NCBI GenBank assembly: GCA_015272325.1
Contig: JACYLU010000002.1
Coordinates: forward strand, 372,001 to 436,000
DNA: 64,000 bases
Direction of reading: 5' to 3'
DNA from: Synechococcales cyanobacterium C42_A2020_086
GTDB lineage: Bacteria; Cyanobacteriota; Cyanobacteriia; Elainellales; Elainellaceae
Shown here: in pieces, positions 19,464 to 34,644 of the stretch
How positions within the stretch are numbered: position 1 is the stretch's first letter
How the letters are laid out: each line of letters begins with the position of its first letter
Program-made: the position numbers and the translations under genes
The notes under the pieces: model-generated
Database searches by the model: none
Told to the model about the DNA's origin: nothing
What the model saw: the letters and a program-made list of their open reading frames with translations, nothing else

Positions 19464-20823
<1,360 letters not shown>

Positions 20824-20841: not shown

Positions 20842-21519
20842 ATGCAACTTTACCTAGACTGTCCCTGCACTAGCTTTCCCCGCAGCTTTGCACGAGACTT
20901 CAAGGAAACCTATCGCTACCCACCACCATCGACGGTTTACGGGCTGCTGCTGTCGCTAGTAGGCGAGGTCGATATGACGGCGCATATTGGTGTGAAGTTG
21001 GGAATCGGAATAATTGGCAGCGATCCACCCATTTCACGCATTGTGCGAAAACAGCGGCACCATAAGTTCAGCAAAACTCACTTGGGGACTTACCCGACCG
21101 GCAAGTTCTCAAAGCCCAATCATCATGAACTGCTGACTGATTTACGGGCGGTGGTCCGAATTGATTCCAGCGAAGAAACGGCAGCAGTAAAACTCGTGGA
21201 TCGAGTGGCGATTGCCCTCTCCACGCCAGCCCAGATTACCCGTTTTGGTGGGCTAAGTTTGGGTGAATCGTGGGCAATGGTGAATGGGATTCGAGTGTAT
21301 CGAGAGTCCGATGGTGAAATTCGCTGGTTGGTTAAAGACCCACGGGGATTAATTGGTCTGCCAGTTTGGATCAACCGCCAAACGACGCAAGGCACATTTC
21401 AGCGCTTCTCCATATCTGAGCCAGGACAAACCTTCACAGAGCAATGTCTGGTTTCAATTCAACTGCCCGCAGCACCTGCAAAGGCGACCAAAGCCAAGCG
21501 CGGTAAAAAGTCAGTTTAG
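20842..21519 (+). CDS. cas5: Cas5 (DevS/Cmx5 type)
   Basis: 225 residues. The N-terminus (LYLDCPCTSFPRSFARDFKETYRYPPPSTVYGLLLSL) is the Cas5 RAMP pattern in which the conserved PPPSTVYG loop precedes the first helix. It caps the 5' handle of the crRNA in Cascade. The basic tail (KATKAKRGKKSV) is unusual but short. It follows the toxin gene by 18 bases and is the last gene of the effector part. Confidence 0.85.
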   Translation: MQLYLDCPCTSFPRSFARDFKETYRYPPPSTVYGLLLSLVGEVDMTAHIGVKLGIGIIGSDPPISRIVRKQRHHKFSKTHLGTYPTGKFSKPNHHELLTDLRAVVRIDSSEETAAVKLVDRVAIALSTPAQITRFGGLSLGESWAMVNGIRVYRESDGEIRWLVKDPRGLIGLPVWINRQTTQGTFQRFSISEPGQTFTEQCLVSIQLPAAPAKATKAKRGKKSV

Positions 21520-21537
21520 CTCTGCGGCTGATTTCGC

Positions 21538-21569
21538 CCAACCTCTGATTGCCGCAAGGCGTTGAACAT
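21538..21569 (+). repeat. Degenerate CRISPR repeat outside the array, next to cas5
   Basis: The segment shares CCAACCT with the array repeat, then a 5-6 base variable stretch (one extra base), then an exact 15-base run GCCGCAAGGCGTTGA, and ends ACAT where the array has GCAC. The Cas6 hairpin GCC-GCAA-GGC is fully kept, while the 5' GTGAG is lost. It is in the same orientation as the array, 18 bases after the cas5 stop. A second hairpin (AGAGCA/TGCTCT, 21597-21614) lies about 28 bases further on. Confidence 0.85.
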
Positions 21570-21607
21570 TACACTAGAGCCAGTACCCTTGCTTTCAGAG
21601 CACAACC

Positions 21608-21885
21608 ATGCTCTATTACGGGCGCTTTATTGATGCTATCGAAGTCATTTCGGGGCAAACCTTTGGTGAAATGCCCGAGAAAGCAACAGACTATTTAGCT
21701 GCCGGGATATCCTGCTGGGTGGTTGATCCGAGAGCGAAAAGCGTCAGCGTATTTCTTCCAGATGCGTCGCCCAAAACCTATCGAGGCAACCGATTGCTTG
21801 AGACGTACTGCTGGGACTCTGTCTAACACCTGAGCAGGTATTTGAGAAGGCTGGGTTAGCTATATTGTCCTTAGAAACTGGTTAA
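21608..21885 (+). pseudogene. Uma2-family (DUF820) endonuclease remnant, frameshifted
   Basis: The first frame reads DAIEVISGQTFGEM...EKATDYLAAGISCWVVDPRAKSVSVF, the middle of a Uma2 protein (PD-(D/E)XK fold). Near 21800 the reading continues in another frame as DVLLGLCLTPEQVFEKAGLA, the usual Uma2 C-terminal strand. The N-terminal third is missing. Uma2 genes are widespread in cyanobacteria and decay often, so this is probably a passenger rather than part of the CRISPR system. Confidence 0.72.
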
Positions 21886-21940
21886 ACGTTAGATTCTGTT
21901 GGCTGAAGTTGTGTTGGGTGTATCCCTGTTCTCGTGACAT

Positions 21941-22087
21941 ATGATTGAACGCGGTAGTCGCCGCATTGATGAATCAAGGGTGTTGCCCGGATTGGGCATT
22001 GAGATTCTAGAACCAGCAATTCAGCAGAGTCGAGAGACAGATCAATCCCAGGTGGGACGTTGGCTGATGGGGCAGTTTCAGGGCTAG
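21941..22087 (+). pseudogene. Second Uma2-like C-terminal fragment
   Basis: A 48-codon frame from ATG 21941. The segment DESRVLPGLGIEILEPAI followed by an SRETDQSQVGRWL tail resembles the C-terminal end of a Uma2 protein. It may be another piece of the preceding remnant or a separate copy. Assignment is by eye and tentative. Confidence 0.45.
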
Positions 22088-22300
22088 ATGATTGAGCGAT
22101 GTATGACTGAGTGACAGTTTATCTAAAATCATTAATCGTCAATCTGGTGATTACAGAAATACATTTGTATTCATAATGAAAAAATCCGTAGAATCGCAGA
22201 GCGGATGATTTCGGAATGCTCGGGTTTATTTTGGTAGCCACCACTGAAGATATGGGTTAGCCACTCAACGGCTAGTTGCTTTGTTGTCACTTGTATTTTT

Positions 22301-22322
22301 TATAGTTCCTGTATAGTTCCTG
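22301..22322. repeat. 11-base tandem duplication just before cas4-cas1
   Basis: TATAGTTCCTG occurs twice back to back and ends 3 bases before the ATG of cas4-cas1. No Shine-Dalgarno sequence is present there, so the duplication sits exactly where transcription and translation of the adaptation genes would begin. Confidence 0.7.
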
Positions 22323-22325
22323 AAA

Positions 22326-23987
22326 ATGAATATTCTCGTTTCGCCGGAGCCGGTTCAGGAGACGCTGCGTGTGTCGTCTCTGCATGCGTTGGCGTACTGC
22401 CCGCGGTTGTTTTATCTGGAAGAAGTCGAAGAACTCTACACGCAAGATGCGGCGGTGTTTGCTGGGCGCAGGCTGCATGTGGAGATTGAAAAAGCAGAGG
22501 GCGATACTTACGAATCGCTGACGTTGGAGAATGAGGCGTTGGGGCTGCGGGGCAAGGTGGATGCTCTGCGAACGCGAGGCGGGCAGACGATTCCCTACGA
22601 GCATAAGCGGGGGCGCTGTCGGCGGGATGGGCAGAACCAGCCGCAGGCGTGGGAGAGCGATCGCTTACAAATTCTTGCCTATGCTTGTTTAATCGAAGCG
22701 GCGTTGGGCGTGACGGTGACCGAAGGGCGGATTCGCTACCATGCCGACAATGTGCTGGTGAGGGTGCTGCTGGATGACCAAGGGCGGCAGGAGGTCAGGG
22801 AGGCGATTGCCCACGCTCGGCAGCTGCGTCGCTCAACGGAACGTCCGCCCGTGACGAGCAACGAACGGCTGTGTGGGCGCTGTTCGCTCGCGCCGGTGTG
22901 TTTGCCGGAAGAAACGCGCTTTGCCCAGGATGAGGCTGTTCAGCCCACTCGCTTGTTTCCGGAAGATGATGACCGAGAGATTTTGCATGTGCTGGAGCCG
23001 GGCACCTGTGTGGGCAAGAGTGGCGATCAGATTAAAATTAGCCGCCGCGATCAGTCCGTGACGACGCTACCGGCGCGGCAGGTGGGGCAGATTGTGCTGC
23101 ATAGCTATGCCCAAATTTCTACTCAAGCGCTGCATTTCTGCGCCGAGCAAGAGATCGGGGTGCATTTTGTTTCGGGCGGCGGGCGCTATATCGGCAGCTT
23201 TGACGGTCGCCAGGGCAGCATTCAGCGGCGCATTCGCCAGTATCGAGCGTTGAGCAGTCCTGAAGTGTGTTTGCAGCTTGCTCGGCGACTCGTGCTGTGC
23301 CGGGGGCAGAGTCAGCGGCGCTTTTTAATGCGGGGGCAGCGCAATCAGAGTTCGGCATCTGAACGATTGCAGCCGACGATCGACCAAATGGAGCGGCTCC
23401 TGAGATTAGTGCCGCAGGCAGAGTCGCTGGAGCAGTTGCTAGGGCTGGAGGGTAATCTGGGGGCGCTCTATTTTGGGGCGTTGCCTGGCTTGATCGCCGA
23501 GGGGGTGCCGCAGGAACTGCGCTTTGGTCGCCGCAGTCGCCGTCCGCCGCTCGATCGGTTTAATGCGCTGCTGAGTTTTGGCTATGCCCTGCTGCTGAAG
23601 GATGTGGTGAATAGCATTCTGACGGTGGGGTTGGAACCAGCCCTCGGGTTTTACCATCAGCCCCGCACCCAGGCACCGCCTCTGGGATTGGATCTCATGG
23701 AAATTTTCCGGGTGCCGCTGGTGGATATGACGGTGATGGGCGCGGTGAACCGGGGACAGTGGGAGGTGTGGGATGACTTTGAGGTGCGCGGTCAGCAGGT
23801 ATGGCTGCGGGAGAGCGGTCGCCGCAAGTTTATTGACCTGTATGAGCGTCGTAAGCAGGAAACCTGGAAGCATCCGATTTTGAAATACTCGCTGACCTAC
23901 CGCCGGCTGATGGAGCTAGAGGTGCGGCTCCTGGAAAAGGAATGGATGGGGGAAGGACAGTTGTTTGGTCATCTGGTAATTCGCTGA
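22326..23987 (+). CDS. cas4-cas1: Cas4-Cas1 fusion, spacer-integration nuclease
   Basis: 553 residues. The N-terminal ~200 residues are a Cas4/RecB-like exonuclease, with an early Cys ([10 protein letters not shown]), the E-x-K motif in YEHKRGR and a Cys cluster [10 protein letters not shown] for an Fe-S site. The rest is Cas1, with [13 protein letters not shown], the catalytic-region [21 protein letters not shown] and [11 protein letters not shown]. It should trim prespacers, choose PAM orientation and integrate them. It is followed 8 bases later by cas2. Fused Cas4-Cas1 proteins are known from Dev/MYXAN and I-G type loci. Confidence 0.93.
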
Positions 23988-23995
23988 GGTGGGCT

Positions 23996-24289
23996 ATGCC
24001 GGAGAGCAAGAATTATTATCTGATCTGCTACGATATCCGTGACCCGAAACGCTGGCGGCAGGTATTTAAGCTGCTGAAAGGCTATGGTGAAAGCCTGCAA
24101 TATTCCATCGTGCGCTGCCGCTTGACGACCCGCGAGCGGGAGAAGCTACGCTGGGAGCTGGAGAAAATTCTCAAAGCGGAGGATAGCCTGCTGATTGCCG
24201 GATTGTGTGACCGCTGCGTGGAGCGAATTCAAAGCTGCAATCGCCCGGAAAGTTGGGTGATGCCAGACGATGCCCACCGAATTTTCTGA
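23996..24289 (+). CDS. cas2: Cas2 adaptation protein
   Basis: 97 residues from ATG 23996 behind a GAGGTGGG site (an upstream in-frame start at 23942 lies inside cas1). The ferredoxin-like fold begins [24 protein letters not shown] with the conserved first-strand Asp, and [17 protein letters not shown] follows. It forms the integrase complex with Cas4-Cas1. The array leader starts right after it. Confidence 0.93.
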
Positions 24290-24551: not shown

Positions 24552-24566
24552 GTGAGCCAACCTTAG
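24471..24566 (+). CDS. Possible 31-residue leader ORF ending inside the first repeat
   Basis: ATG 24471 is preceded by AGAGGAAG with about 5 bases spacing, a good ribosome site, 11 bases after the putative -10 box. The frame reads MAKMTMATQDLENLLSNLD then continues to HAVSQP and stops at the TAG in the repeat's CCTTAG (24564-24566). No family was recognised. It could be a translated leader peptide, the stub of a gene the array grew into, or chance. Confidence 0.4.
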   Translation: MAKMTMATQDLENLLSNLDSKQISRHAVSQP

Positions 24567-27500
24567 ATGCCGCAAGGCGTTGAGCACAAAAATTCATCTA
24601 TTGAGACGACTCTAGCAGGTTGGTCCCGTGAGCCAACCTTAGATGCCGCAAGGCGTTGAGCACTCAATCAGGAACGCGCCTGACTCAGCGTTCCCGATTT
24701 GTGAGCCAACCTTAGATGCCGCAAGGCGTTGAGCACAAAAACGACCGCTTGGCGATTTTAATCGCCCACCGTGAGCCAACCTTAGATGCCGCAAGGCGTT
24801 GAGCACTTGATGAACGCGATCGCGTCCTTGCAGCCATCGCGGTGAGCCAACCTTAGATGCCGCAAGGCGTTGAGCACGTGTCGGTCGCGATAGTCTCGCA
24901 ACAAAGCCGCGAGTGAGCCAACCTTAGATGCCGCAAGGCGTTGAGCACTGGGTCACCTTTAACCCCCGCTATCCCAGCGATATGTGAGCCAACCTTAGAT
25001 GCCGCAAGGCGTTGAGCACAATCTGTTTAAAGTCCAGATCCGTGCGCCAAACCGAGTGAGCCAACCTTAGATGCCGCAAGGCGTTGAGCACCTCCGGGCT
25101 GTTGCCCGTCTTCCAGACAAACTGCTGTGAGCCAACCTTAGATGCCGCAAGGCGTTGAGCACTGGGTGGTACTCGATTAAATGGGTTATTCACTCACGTG
25201 AGCCAACCTTAGATGCCGCAAGGCGTTGAGCACCGCCTTCAGGTCTGAAACACTATGATTTTCACGCCGTGAGCCAACCTTAGATGCCGCAAGGCGTTGA
25301 GCACGTACATCACCTTTTCCCTAGAAGACGAATCAGTGGTGAGCCAACCTTAGATGCCGCAAGGCGTTGAGCACCCCCGGCTCCCAGCTTTAACACAACC
25401 CTGACTGTCGCGTGAGCCAACCTTAGATGCCGCAAGGCGTTGAGCACTTAATACTCCTTTTTGAATCGCCTCATACATCTCGTGTGAGCCAACCTTAGAT
25501 GCCGCAAGGCGTTGAGCACATTCACGGACGATTGGATATCAGCAATTTCTACGCGTGAGCCAACCTTAGATGCCGCAAGGCGTTGAGCACTTTGGGGTTC
25601 TAAGCTCATCAAAACACCTCTGAGAAGTGAGCCAACCTTAGATGCCGCAAGGCGTTGAGCACGGCTTTTGGGAACGATTCAACGATCTTGTCTCCCAGGT
25701 GAGCCAACCTTAGATGCCGCAAGGCGTTGAGCACATTCTGCAAGTTGGGCTTGCGCTTTTTGGGCTTCGTGAGCCAACCTTAGATGCCGCAAGGCGTTGA
25801 GCACCGAGGAAAAGCCCGAACTTGGGGTACCCCAACAACGTGAGCCAACCTTAGATGCCGCAAGGCGTTGAGCACCGGCCGACCTCCTAGACCTATGCGT
25901 TTTCACCTTGAGTGAGCCAACCTTAGATGCCGCAAGGCGTTGAGCACGCTGAACCCTGTCTGGGTTCAGATTTTGAGGACTCGTGAGCCAACCTTAGATG
26001 CCGCAAGGCGTTGAGCACTTTTGTGTGCCTTACACTTGGCGTATACTACTTGTAGTGAGCCAACCTTAGATGCCGCAAGGCGTTGAGCACTAGCTGAGCA
26101 AGTACGTGCTAAAGCACAGAGCACGTGAGCCAACCTTAGATGCCGCAAGGCGTTGAGCACGTTTGGAGTTCGATGCAATCTCTGACTCTCAATTCGTGAG
26201 CCAACCTTAGATGCCGCAAGGCGTTGAGCACTTGGGGGTTTTTCGCTTGGTCAACCCCAATCGGGGGGTGAGCCAACCTTAGATGCCGCAAGGCGTTGAG
26301 CACAGCTACCGGGAACATGAGGAGCTACCGGGAACGTGTGAGCCAACCTTAGATGCCGCAAGGCGTTGAGCACTCTGCGTCCGCGGTTGCGGCGGCACCG
26401 GCACTTGTTGCGCGTGAGCCAACCTTAGATGCCGCAAGGCGTTGAGCACATTATCGCCGACGAACTGTTGGCTCCTGGCAATCGTGAGCCAACCTTAGAT
26501 GCCGCAAGGCGTTGAGCACTGACCACGCCAGACGACCAGATCTTCCTGACGGCGTGTGAGCCAACCTTAGATGCCGCAAGGCGTTGAGCACCTGGACGGC
26601 CTCGGCGTAGACTACGTGGGGCGACTGTGAGCCAACCTTAGATGCCGCAAGGCGTTGAGCACTTATTACGCTCTGAACGTTGTTGCGATTGTTCAGAGGT
26701 GAGCCAACCTTAGATGCCGCAAGGCGTTGAGCACGACCGCCTAAAACGGCAGCTGAAACTAATTCACCTTTGTGAGCCAACCTTAGATGCCGCAAGGCGT
26801 TGAGCACTATCTCTTGTAGACGACGAAGCCCTCGACCTGCTCGTGAGCCAACCTTAGATGCCGCAAGGCGTTGAGCACTTTGGTACAGCGTCGAAGCGCA
26901 ATACACCGGCACGTGAGCCAACCTTAGATGCCGCAAGGCGTTGAGCACCGGGTTTCAGCTACTGGGGTCAGACGAAAGAATGCGGGTGAGCCAACCTTAG
27001 ATGCCGCAAGGCGTTGAGCACAATACAAGGTAACAGCGACTACCGGAACGGGAAATGGTGAGCCAACCTTAGATGCCGCAAGGCGTTGAGCACCGGAGGC
27101 AACGGGCAACATGCTGCAAGCGGAGTGGGTGAGCCAACCTTAGATGCCGCAAGGCGTTGAGCACGTTAGTCCGCCGCCAAACAGCGATCTGGGAACGAAG
27201 GCAGGTGAGCCAACCTTAGATGCCGCAAGGCGTTGAGCACTGCAGGCGTTGGGTCCGGTCCCTGCGGACCGGGAGAGTGAGCCAACCTTAGATGCCGCAA
27301 GGCGTTGAGCACTGTATCGCTCAATAATTTGAGGCTCTCGATCATTGGTGAGCCAACCTTAGATGCCGCAAGGCGTTGAGCACACCTAATAACCACATGA
27401 CTGAAATACGCATTAAAGACGTGAGCCAACCTTAGATGCCGCAAGGCGTTGAGCACGGACGGGCGCTGTCGCCCTACCCCACTCCACCGCCTGTGAGCCA

Positions 27501-28453
27501 ACCTTAGATGCCGCAAGGCGTTGAGCACTAGAAAGATTTCAGGGTGATACCCAAAGCCAGAAAAGTGAGCCAACCTTAGATGCCGCAAGGCGTTGAGCAC
27601 TTAGAACACAACAATATATTCAAGAGTTGATTAACGTGAGCCAACCTTAGATGCCGCAAGGCGTTGAGCACGCGAACTATCTCAACTTTGAAAGCGGCGG
27701 ACTGCGGTGAGCCAACCTTAGATGCCGCAAGGCGTTGAGCACCGGATCTTGGCGGTGCCAATCTCCGCGGTGCCGATCTGTGAGCCAACCTTAGATGCCG
27801 CAAGGCGTTGAGCACTAAAGAACCAATTCCTCTGTCTGTTGCCCCGTTCGTGAGCCAACCTTAGATGCCGCAAGGCGTTGAGCACGCTATTAGAAAAACC
27901 GCCTAACCAACTCAGCTTGGTGAGCCAACCTTAGATGCCGCAAGGCGTTGAGCACGTTACGGGTAACTCAGGTGGTAACCGAGTGGTGAGTGAGCCAACC
28001 TTAGATGCCGCAAGGCGTTGAGCACCCCGGCTGAAGAAGCAGTTTACCCAGGATTGCGCGAGTGAGCCAACCTTAGATGCCGCAAGGCGTTGAGCACTCT
28101 CTATCCTCGACATGACCACAAGCGGGATTAGGTGAGCCAACCTTAGATGCCGCAAGGCGTTGAGCACCAACCGAGCAATCTTTCGCCTTCTGTTTGCCGC
28201 AGCGTGAGCCAACCTTAGATGCCGCAAGGCGTTGAGCACATTAGGATTGTTTAGAACAGGTTTGTTGCGATCAGTGAGCCAACCTTAGATGCCGCAAGGC
28301 GTTGAGCACAGCTTTTGGGAACGATTCAACGATCTTGTCTCCCAGGGTGAGCCAACCTTAGATGCCGCAAGGCGTTGAGCACGTACTGTCCCGTTGAGGC
28401 AACTTCCCGCTCACCTAGTGAGCCAACCTTAGATGCCGCAAGGCGTTGAGCAC
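24552..28453 (+). CRISPR. CRISPR array, 55 repeats and 54 spacers
   Basis: I counted 55 copies of a 36-base repeat starting GTGAGCCAACCTTAGATG and ending GCGTTGAGCAC, spaced by 33-40 base spacers (mean unit about 71.6). All copies look identical by eye, including the last, so there is no decayed terminal repeat here. The centre forms a short stem with a GNRA loop (GCC-GCAA-GGC, extendable by U-G and A-U), the likely Cas6 site. Leader and cas2 lie at the low-coordinate end, so new spacers enter there. Spacers 16 and 53 are nearly the same. The minus-strand frames across the array are repeat artefacts. Confidence 0.98.
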
Positions 28454-28474
28454 TGGGAGAGGTATCAACTTCGG

Positions 28475-29379
28475 GGTAGTGAGTCAAATTAATGTGGGGT
28501 AAGTAGCGATGTCGTGCCAATTCCACGATTGTGTTGTTAGTCCTGCTCGCTGTGCAGCAGTGGTTTTGAAGCGGCTATGCTGCCAAACCCAGTTGAAATA
28601 ACTCCCCACTAACGGTGTCGTCACCTTGATTTATTCCCAAACCTTGCCAAACTTATTCTGTCGTCGCTGCTATCTTCCCGTTTGTTGTCGCAACGTTCCA
28701 TTTGTCCGCTCCAATCGCTGTGTTTTATCTTTGTCAATGTAATGATTTGATTTCTGGCGGCAACCCTCGCTCGTATCCACCCCAGTCATCGGTATTCAAC
28801 TGTTTGCAATCAGTTTTGCCTTCAGTATTCATGACTAATTGCTCTATGAACGCATCGGTGTGTTTGCCCACGCAGGCGGTGAGAATCAAGCCACTGAAGC
28901 AGGCAAGACTCGAACCAATCCAACAGTCGCCCCGATTTAGTTCCTTGCTGGTGCATTGCTTCTGTTTTCTGCGACAAATGACCCCATTTCGTCGGCACAG
29001 CCTTCTTCAGTCTCGACGGATTGAACCTCCCCGTTATGCACCCATTGGGCTTTTTGACTGGCAGAGCGCACAATACTCACCACGGTATTGTAGGCAAGTC
29101 CACTGGTCCGGCTAATGCCTCGATAAGCTACTGCCCTCGCTGTGCGCTTGCAGCACTTGGTGAATTTGTTCAGGACTGACATGGCGGCGGTAATAAAGAC
29201 TATCGAATGACTCACCAAAGGTTTGATGGCAAGCGGGACAGAGATAGCGTTGATGACCATTGGGCATCTTGCCATGCTTATGGGTTTTGCTATGACCGCA
29301 CAGTGGGCATTCTATCGCTTTGATTCCAGTCGAGGTTCCTCTCTACTTGATCAATCCCACATTAGCCTGACGCACCACC
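28475..29379 (-). mobile_element. Decayed IS1-family insertion sequence
   Basis: About 905 bases, bounded by 24-base imperfect terminal inverted repeats at 28475-28498 and 29356-29379 (both share GGT, GTG, GTCA and TAATGTGGG in register). It lies 21 bases after the last repeat, so it cuts the 55th spacer. I found no clear target-site duplication next to either end, which suggests a later deletion or rearrangement at one end. The transposase inside is broken. Confidence 0.85.
28484..29321 (-). pseudogene. IS1-family transposase, several frameshifts
   Basis: Read on the minus strand, the N-terminal zinc-binding part (CPLCGHSKTHKHGKMPNGHQ ... CPAC) gives way after HSEGSS to a second frame with YRGISRTSGLAYNTVVSIVR and ETEEGCADEMGSFV. 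Further segments (GKHTDAFIEQLV, then TDDWGGYERGLPPEI, and WQHSRFKTTAAQRAGL near the end) lie in other frames. The first shift may correspond to the programmed shift known in IS1, but the later ones and a stop mean the gene is dead. Confidence 0.85.
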
Positions 29380-33056: not shown

Positions 33057-33091
33057 GTGAGCCAACCTTAGATGCCGCAAGGCGTTAGCAC
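33057..33091 (+). repeat. Orphan CRISPR repeat, 4.6 kb beyond the array
   Basis: 35 bases identical to the array repeat except for one missing G (GCGTTAGCAC instead of GCGTTGAGCAC), in the same orientation. 20 bases of possible spacer remnant separate it from the IS3 relic. Its last 7 bases overlap the 3' end of the convergent aminopeptidase gene, whose TAA stop (33085-33087 on the minus strand) lies within the repeat. Confidence 0.95.
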
Positions 33092-34644
33092 TCACGATTC
33101 ACGACTTGCCGACTCTGAGAGCTTTGGGGCTGAGCTGACAATTCACCCTGCACGAGCTGCTCAATCGCATCCGCCTGAGTCGGTAGGGCAGCCGTTAGCA
33201 CCTCACTGCCGGTTTCGGTAATCAGCACATCGTCTTCAATGCGGATGCCGCGCACATCTGCAAATTGAGCTAGCCGTTCCCAGTTGACCACCTCACGATA
33301 GCGCTGCTGCCGCTCTGGGTCCTGCAAAATTGCCGGCACCTGATAGAACCCTGGCTCGATGGTCACCGCCATGCCCGGACGCAAAGGCCGATCCAACCGC
33401 AGATAGCTCAGCCCAAAGCGGTCGCTGCGGACCCGCCCCGCCTCGTAGCCGGCCAGATCGCCCAGATCCTCCATATCGTGAACATCCAGCCCGAGCAAAT
33501 GCCCGACTCCGTGCGGAAAAAACAGCGCGTGGGCGTCCATTGCGACTAGATCCTCAGCTCGACCGCGCAGAATGCCGAGATCGCTCAAGCCGGCTGCAAT
33601 CACCTGAGCCGCCAACAGATGCAGATCGCGATACTCCACCCCAGGACGGGACTGCTGAATGCACTGGTCATGGGCGGCCAACACGACGTCGTAGAGATCG
33701 CGCTGCGTTGGGGAGAATTGACCAGACACCGGCCAAGTCCGGGTGACATCCGACGCCCAACCCGAAGGAGCTTCTGCCCCCAGATCGGCCAGCAGCAGAT
33801 CGCCGGGTTGCAGCAGATGATGGTATTGCTCGTTGTGTAGCACTTCGCCATGCACCGTGACAATGCTGGAGTAGGCGCAAGTTGTATTGTGCGCCATGAC
33901 GACTGCTTCCATGGCCGCCCGCACCTCCGCTTCGGTTTGAGCGTGGGGCGTAGCTGCCATGCCCGCTCTATGGGCCGCTACCGTGATGGTCGCTGCTCGA
34001 CGGATTTCATGCACAGCCGCGGCATCATGACTCAGGCGGAGTTGAATAATTGCTTCGGCGAGCAGCCGGTCGTGGTCGTGCAGCCGGTTGGGCGTCAGCG
34101 GCCGGTCGAGAAGCTGAGATTGCAGCAGGCGTGTCGCTGGGTCGGGGACGGGAATGGTGGCAGCTCCAGCGGTGAAATCCTTGAGCTGGTCCAACGGATA
34201 GGCAGCCTCAGCACCTATCTGGGCGGCAATCTCGTCGCGGGGTGGGGTGTCCCCATGCCAGAGGCGGTCGGCAGGGGTGGCATCGTCTAGGAATAGCGTC
34301 AGCGTGCCGTCGTATAGGTGAATTGCGGCATGGGGGAGCGGCAGCCCAGCAAAGTAGAGGAAGTGGCTGCTAGCCCGAAACGGATAGGTGTTGGCTGGAT
34401 AGTTGCGCGAAGACCTGCCTCCGGCCCAGAGCACCACCGGAAATTCCACCTGTGCGGCTAATCGCAGGCGGCGCTGCTTTAGAATCATCGGCAGCGAGAG
34501 CGAATCGGGGGCAACGGGGGAGGTGATCGGGTGCGGCATCGTCAGGGTAGCTTCAAGCTCTATGTCACTACCATATCGCTGGATGAGGGTTTTGGTGGCC
34601 GGCCCAGATGCCAGTGCCATGCTTGAATTAGCGGATTGACTCAT
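33085..34644 (-). CDS. pepP: Xaa-Pro aminopeptidase (aminopeptidase P, M24B)
   Basis: Up to 519 residues. An N-terminal AMP-binding/creatinase-like domain (about 50-190, FPVVLWAGGRSSRNYPANTYPFR) precedes the M24 pita-bread catalytic domain, with metal ligands in LLADLGAEAPSGWASDVTRTW, HGVGHLLGLDVHD, TIEPGFY and RIEDDVLI. It removes N-terminal residues preceding proline. ATG 34644 overlaps the end of nei; ATG 34620 or 34539 are alternatives. The last residues (NREC) and the stop are supplied by the orphan CRISPR repeat, so the natural C-terminus may have been changed. Confidence 0.9.
   Translation of the reverse strand: MSQSANSSMALASGPATKTLIQRYGSDIELEATLTMPHPITSPVAPDSLSLPMILKQRRLRLAAQVEFPVVLWAGGRSSRNYPANTYPFRASSHFLYFAGLPLPHAAIHLYDGTLTLFLDDATPADRLWHGDTPPRDEIAAQIGAEAAYPLDQLKDFTAGAATIPVPDPATRLLQSQLLDRPLTPNRLHDHDRLLAEAIIQLRLSHDAAAVHEIRRAATITVAAHRAGMAATPHAQTEAEVRAAMEAVVMAHNTTCAYSSIVTVHGEVLHNEQYHHLLQPGDLLLADLGAEAPSGWASDVTRTWPVSGQFSPTQRDLYDVVLAAHDQCIQQSRPGVEYRDLHLLAAQVIAAGLSDLGILRGRAEDLVAMDAHALFFPHGVGHLLGLDVHDMEDLGDLAGYEAGRVRSDRFGLSYLRLDRPLRPGMAVTIEPGFYQVPAILQDPERQQRYREVVNWERLAQFADVRGIRIEDDVLITETGSEVLTAALPTQADAIEQLVQGELSAQPQSSQSRQVVNREC

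What the first reader, a model, noticed from the sequence alone, without database searches (positions are those of the whole stretch)
21538..21569. Degenerate CRISPR repeat hidden between cas5 and the adaptation genes
An exact 15-base run of the repeat (GCCGCAAGGCGTTGA) with the whole Cas6 hairpin, plus CCAACCT, lies 18 bases after the cas5 stop, 3 kb from the array and in the same orientation. Divergent single repeats of this kind in other type I loci make crRNA-like guides that turn Cascade on its own promoters or on a toxin (CreA and related RNAs). The guide part would begin about TACACTAGAGCC. The embedded toxin-antitoxin pair 700 bases upstream makes a regulatory or guarding link attractive. 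I could not find its target by eye.
Basis: partly seen in the sequence, partly recalled or inferred. Interest (0 to 1): 0.85.

Follow-up and report, generated by a model that had tools for sequence, protein, structure and literature searches.

The report
Conserved CRISPR-repeat hairpin before cas1
A single worn CRISPR repeat sits between the attack genes and the memory genes of a cyanobacterial CRISPR system; relatives in many genera keep the same hairpin in the same place, so it is probably a working control element of the cas message rather than, as first guessed, a guide aimed at a toxin.

Summary
A degenerate copy of the 36-base type I-MYXAN repeat (29 identities, two 1-base insertions, exact 16-base core) lies at 21533-21569, just after the cas5 stop. 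Outside the 55-repeat array its 15-mer occurs nowhere else in the 5.9 Mb genome. It is not private: 23 of 48 cyanobacterial I-MYXAN loci have a repeat-like hairpin between cas5 and cas4-1 (controls 1-4 of 48). In a five-genus alignment the hairpin is conserved far above the rest of the gap (12/16 invariant columns against 41/212). Two forms exist. 'T' has an rRNA-type boxA upstream, no crRNA handle and a U-tract behind the hairpin. 'H', including the window, has no boxA and mostly keeps a TTGA(A/G)C handle. The guide reading is not supported: no CreA-type seed target in the window (offsets -3 to +2), none in ten other H loci, no genome-wide excess. The toxin pair occurs with and without the element. 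Best reading: a cis-acting, repeat-derived hairpin in the cas transcript, recognised by Cas6, between effector and adaptation genes. Conservation is shown; Cas6 action is inferred. A two-repeat mini-array fills the same gap in one plasmid relative, so a guide is not excluded.

The parts
21533..21569 (+). degenerate CRISPR repeat (the element)
   Evidence: 29 identities to the array repeat, two 1-base insertions; conserved place in relatives
21551..21560 (+). hairpin GCC-GCAA-GGC, the Cas6-type stem-loop
   Evidence: identical to the array hairpin; the three G-C pairs stay paired in 21 aligned copies
21562..21569 (+). handle-like TTGAACAT (array: TTGAGCAC)
   Evidence: 6 of 8 bases as in the array; the handle is lost in the boxA relatives
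21570..21604 (+). stretch that would be the guide if the RNA were crRNA-like; no target found
20842..21519 (+). cas5/devS, last effector gene
   Evidence: TIGR02586, E 6.7e-31
22326..23987 (+). cas4-cas1 fusion, first adaptation gene
   Evidence: TIGR03983, E 4e-169
23996..24289 (+). cas2
   Evidence: TIGR01573
14751..15413 (+). cas6/cmx6, the presumed binder of the hairpin; intact
   Evidence: TIGR02807, E 6.9e-52
24552..28453 (+). CRISPR array, 55 exact repeats
20330..20823 (+). small ORF (antitoxin by position) and ParE/RelE-type toxin between cas7 and cas5; not specifically linked to the element
   Evidence: PF05016, E 3.8e-14; distribution
21608..21826 (+). fragment of a Uma2 gene inserted between the element and cas4-1
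   Evidence: PF05685, weak and partial, below the family cut-off

Best explanation
The element is one instance of a conserved RNA hairpin derived from a CRISPR repeat. It lies in the untranslated gap between the effector genes (cas6-3-8-7-5) and the adaptation genes (cas4-1, cas2) of cyanobacterial type I-MYXAN loci. Shown: it descends from a repeat, recurs at this place in many genera, and in the best-aligned clade is conserved above the surrounding gap. Inferred: it works in cis. The cas transcript folds the same hairpin that Cas6 recognises in pre-crRNA; Cas6 binds or cuts there, separating the effector message from the adaptation message and letting free Cas6 (and so the supply of crRNA) influence how much Cas4-1/Cas2 is made. 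In one clade the element has become boxA - hairpin - U-tract, a terminator-like form; the window keeps the repeat-like form with the handle and has no boxA.
For: Repeat-like hairpin in 23 of 48 cas5-cas1 gaps against 1-4 of 48 in four controls; at the stricter score 18 against 0-1 (per-locus shuffles). Five-genus alignment: hairpin 12/16 invariant columns, rest of gap 41/212, Fisher p 7e-6. G-C pairs of the stem paired in all 21 copies. In seven loci the hairpin lies 33-95 bases before the cas1 start, including three where other genes separate it from cas5. Handle and guide are not generally conserved while the hairpin is. Cas6 of the window is intact. The window is sister to the clade in which 9 of 10 loci keep the hairpin.
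Against: No RNA or binding data. No compensatory double changes. About half of the loci lack a recognisable element. Several H-form copies keep a handle, which a cis site would not need. The window has no close relative that allows a test of selection on this very copy.
Confidence: 0.45

Rival explanations
1. A crRNA-like regulatory guide (CreR/CreA kind): Cas6 cuts at the hairpin, the RNA TTGAACAT-TACACTAGAGCC... loads into Cascade and represses a promoter by partial pairing.
For: The handle is kept in the window (6 of 8) and in several other loci. A two-repeat mini-array with 66-base spacing stands in the same gap in Gloeothece citriformis plasmid pP742402. Precedents: PMC8501985, PMC9458426, CreR as reviewed in PMC12737573.
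Against: No 10-base seed target in the 64 kb window for starts -3 to +2, none in ten other loci (0 against 1.1 expected), no genome excess. The boxA form has lost the handle.
Confidence: 0.2
2. A relic: the last worn repeat of an old array between cas5 and cas1, without present function in the window.
For: The window lacks boxA, and a foreign gene fragment follows the element. Another stray repeat exists at 33058. Half of the loci lack the element; in L069 the sides of a repeat remain while the hairpin is gone.
Against: The hairpin is conserved across genera while its flanks are not; always one hairpin at this place, rarely a second; the stem and 16-base core in the window are intact.
Confidence: 0.2
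3. An ordinary intrinsic terminator ending the effector operon, made from a repeat hairpin.
For: In the ten boxA loci the 8 bases after the stem hold 48 T against 23 expected (z about 6, relatedness of the loci not corrected).
Against: No U-tract in the window (TTGAACAT) or in the other boxA-less loci taken together (28 T against 25). The stem is only 3 G-C pairs plus wobbles, -4 to -8 kcal/mol. The terminator scan does not call it.
Confidence: 0.15

Closest known systems
CreA of CreTA modules (ectopic degenerate repeats; PMC8501985, PMC9458426)
   Same: Degenerate repeat outside the array, inside a type I cas locus, keeping nucleotides for Cas6
   Different: No small toxin RNA or target promoter found; mostly one repeat; the conserved part here is the hairpin, whereas the first CreA repeat conserves the Cas5-binding handle best
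CreR and the mini-arrays of Shmakov et al. 2023 (NAR, gkad495; not readable here, known from its citation in PMC10651486 and from memory)
   Same: Stand-alone repeat-like units within cas loci, conserved in related loci
   Different: No second repeat and no partially complementary cas promoter found for the window copy; I cannot say whether I-MYXAN cases are listed there
boxA elements upstream of CRISPR arrays (Stringer et al., as cited in PMC7862264)
   Same: The T form has an rRNA-type boxA before the repeat-derived hairpin
   Different: Here it precedes a single hairpin and cas1, not an array; absent in the window
Racr / solitary repeat units of phages (PMC10651486)
   Same: Single repeat mimics that Cas6 could bind
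   Different: Host-encoded, inside the cas operon, not in a phage or prophage

Membership tests
Ectopic (stand-alone) degenerate CRISPR repeat | repeat-derived sequence outside the array, more similar than chance | tested here: met
Ectopic (stand-alone) degenerate CRISPR repeat | conserved at the same place in related loci | tested here: met
CreA/CreR crRNA-like guide | 8-nt 5' handle retained | tested here: inconclusive
   6 of 8 in the window; lost in T-form relatives
CreA/CreR crRNA-like guide | seed (1-5, 7-11) complementary to a promoter in the locus | tested here: not met
CreA/CreR crRNA-like guide | second degenerate repeat about one spacer downstream (usual, not obligatory) | tested here: not met
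   none in the window; present in L161
CreA/CreR crRNA-like guide | Cas6-processed RNA bound by Cascade | not testable with these tools
   needs RNA-seq and pull-down
CreTA | linked small toxin RNA repressed by CreA | tested here: not met
   only a protein toxin gene inside the operon, found with and without the element; no seed target near it; small toxin RNAs were not searched for as such
Intrinsic terminator | GC stem followed by a U-tract | tested here: not met
   not in the window; met in most T-form relatives
Cas6 site in mRNA (cis element) | Cas6-dependent cleavage or binding of the cas transcript | not testable with these tools
   inferred from the stem identical to the array repeat and the intact Cas6

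The most novel reading that the evidence does not exclude
A CRISPR repeat has been recruited as a Cas6-sensing switch in cis: Cas6 that is not occupied by pre-crRNA binds or cuts the repeat hairpin in the cas transcript (in one clade a boxA - hairpin - U-tract attenuator), so the crRNA supply sets how much of the adaptation machinery is made. This would be a guide-free form of CRISPR autoregulation.
Probability: 0.25. Interest if true: 0.8.

Novelty: new variant of a known kind. Interest (0 to 1): 0.55.

Why it matters
Ectopic repeats known so far act as guides for Cascade or Cas12a, or as RNA anti-CRISPRs in phages. Here the hairpin is the conserved part, the handle and guide are not, and the place is the border between interference and adaptation genes. 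If it is a Cas6 site in mRNA, it would explain how these loci balance spacer uptake against interference without a guide or a transcription factor, and it might bear on the negative autoregulation by DevTRS in the Myxococcus dev system, whose mechanism is unknown (PMC8616872). It can be tested with one stem mutant.

Tried and rejected
Guide targets: window seeds and shuffles, genome 12-mer with one mismatch, both sides of the hairpin in 22 loci, two-repeat and other handle-keeping loci, guide offsets, upstream sequence added for ten loci without boxA: nothing above chance. Reading the conserved GAACCTTGA(A/C)AACTGAATA upstream of T-form hairpins as a first degenerate repeat with seed: rejected because it matches the published ITS boxA plus D4 and recurs in the leaders of two other arrays of this genome. 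The rRNA of the own genome could not be used to check boxA, as no LSU rRNA was found in the assembly held. Covariation: none found (one search used a misplaced structure and is void; one search was a length error). Rfam: no match in 21400-22400. Link with the toxin pair: not specific. Full-length Uma2 homologue in the own genome, to trace the start of the fragment: none. Literature: Shmakov et al. 2023 is not held and the CreR paper did not come up, so I cannot exclude that this element was listed there; searches for Cas6 acting on cas mRNA gave nothing direct.

Full report
WHAT IS THERE. The window holds a type I-MYXAN (I-B-like) CRISPR-Cas locus of a cyanobacterium: WYL regulator, cas6/cmx6, cas3, cas8, cas7/devR, a small ORF and a ParE/RelE-type toxin gene, cas5/devS, then the element, a Uma2 fragment, a cas4-cas1 fusion, cas2 and an array of 55 exact repeats. 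The element at 21533-21569 is a degenerate copy of the repeat with 29 identities, two single-base insertions and an exact 16-base core.

IS IT PRIVATE OR CONSERVED. I collected cyanobacterial I-MYXAN loci by Cas5, oriented them and measured the cas5-to-cas1 gap. A weight matrix from 16 distinct array repeats found a repeat-like hairpin in 23 of 48 gaps at score 9.5 or more; controls of the same length gave 4 (reverse strand), 1 and 3 (upstream, both strands) and 4 (cas1 coding). At score 14 it is 18 against 0-1 (per-locus shuffles). The threshold 9.5 was set after seeing the scores; the stricter cut does not depend on that. The loci come from many genera and from two Cas5 groups that share only about 40% identity.

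WHAT IS CONSERVED. In 21 aligned copies the three G-C pairs of the stem are always paired (some through G-U), the loop varies, and G follows the stem in nearly all. There are no double compensatory changes, so the pairing is not proven by covariation. In an alignment of five genera the hairpin has 12 of 16 invariant columns, a boxA motif 10 of 12, and the rest of the gap 41 of 212. This points to selection on the hairpin, not the decay of an abandoned repeat, at least in that clade.

TWO FORMS. T form: about 15-35 bases after the cas5 stop lies GAACCTTGAAAACTGAATA or close to it; this is the boxA plus D4 of the 16S-23S spacer of Leptolyngbyaceae (PMC8461337) and a near copy also lies before two other CRISPR arrays of this genome. 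About 42-76 bases on comes the hairpin, then a U-tract instead of the handle (48 T against 23 expected; relatedness not corrected). H form: no boxA, no U-tract, mostly TTGAAC or TTGAGC behind the stem; in seven cases 33-95 bases before the cas1 start, in three or more of them with other sequence of 680-1400 bases between it and cas5. On the Cas1 tree the window is sister (99/97) to a clade of ten of which nine are T form. The window itself is H form, yet shares the inserted T of TGATTGCC with Leptolyngbya sp. FACHB-36, a T-form locus with one of the closest Cas5 proteins. That FACHB-36 locus (L053) did not enter the Cas1 tree.

THE GUIDE IDEA. Known CreA RNAs need complementarity at positions 1-5 and 7-11 (PMC8501985). 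No site in the 64 kb window meets this for the putative guide or for starts shifted by -3 to +2; the one site at +3 (54597) is what chance gives. The genome shows no excess of 12-mers. Ten more loci without boxA, with cas sequence upstream added where the contig allowed, give none. T-form loci lack the handle. Against this, one plasmid relative has a proper two-repeat mini-array in the same gap, and another has two repeats 114 bases apart. The guide reading is therefore unsupported but not excluded, above all for targets outside the cas locus.

THE TOXIN IDEA. The toxin lies between cas7 and cas5 in nine loci; six have the element and three do not, and most loci with the element lack the toxin. 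The upstream small ORF overlaps the end of cas7. Nothing ties the element to it.

MECHANISM. Step 1, descent from a repeat: shown. Step 2, retention of the hairpin by selection in the class: shown for the clade next to the window, likely but untested for the window copy. Step 3, transcription with the cas genes: inferred from strand and place. Step 4, recognition by Cas6: inferred from the identical stem and the intact Cas6. Step 5, effect on cas4-1 expression: inferred from the place. I put 0.45 on this chain, 0.2 each on guide and relic, 0.15 on a plain terminator.

NOVELTY. Ectopic degenerate repeats are a known kind. A solo repeat hairpin fixed at the effector/adaptation border, with boxA in one clade and without a conserved guide, is a variant I have not seen described; the most relevant survey could not be read here, so the claim is provisional.

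Noticed in passing
window 33058-33092 (+): A second solo repeat, GTGAGCCAACCTTAGATGCCGCAAGGCGTTAGCAC, identical to the array repeat except for one missing base, 4.6 kb beyond the array end. Possibly the old array end, cut off by insertions.
   Followed up: partly
window 28454-29280: After the last exact repeat and a spacer, the array ends in a truncated repeat (GTGAGTCAA), followed by ORFs on the minus strand that look like an IS1-type transposase remnant (family by eye).
   Followed up: no
window 20330-20823: Toxin pair inserted between cas7 and cas5; the toxin protein is 100% identical in G004 although Cas5 is about 80% identical, and it stands in the same slot in nine loci; in Synechococcus sp. 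NIES-970 (L158) a PIN-domain protein gene fills the slot.
   Followed up: partly
L122 (Leptolyngbyaceae RM1_1_2) cas5-cas1 gap: An insert that looks like a Uma2 gene is flanked by two copies of CCTCAGATGCCGTC, one ending inside the hairpin: insertion into the element with duplication.
   Followed up: no
L018, L046, L048, L050, L054, L058, L063, L158: 60-100 bases before cas1: Another recurring motif, CGGAAGC-n-TTTTTGCAGGG or similar, upstream of cas1 in loci that mostly lack the repeat hairpin.
   Followed up: no
L117, L062, L020: about 50-100 bases before cas1: A second conserved block in the gap (ACGTATCTTT..AAGTCGGAAA...TGTAG.CATAGTTGG), probably promoter or leader of cas1.
   Followed up: no
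L160 (Gloeothece verrucosa PCC 7822 plasmid): I-MYXAN effector genes without cas3 or cas1, a short cluster of degenerate repeats after cas5, then a TniQ gene: looks like a type I-B CRISPR-associated transposon. Other loci with repeats directly after cas5 and no cas1 (L021, L079, L083, L145, L146) may be similar.
   Followed up: no
L153 and L154 (own genome, contig C8): Two other CRISPR arrays (CRISPR-DR57 type) with identical upstream sequence carrying the boxA-like CTGAACCTTGAAAACCGCATGA.
   Followed up: partly
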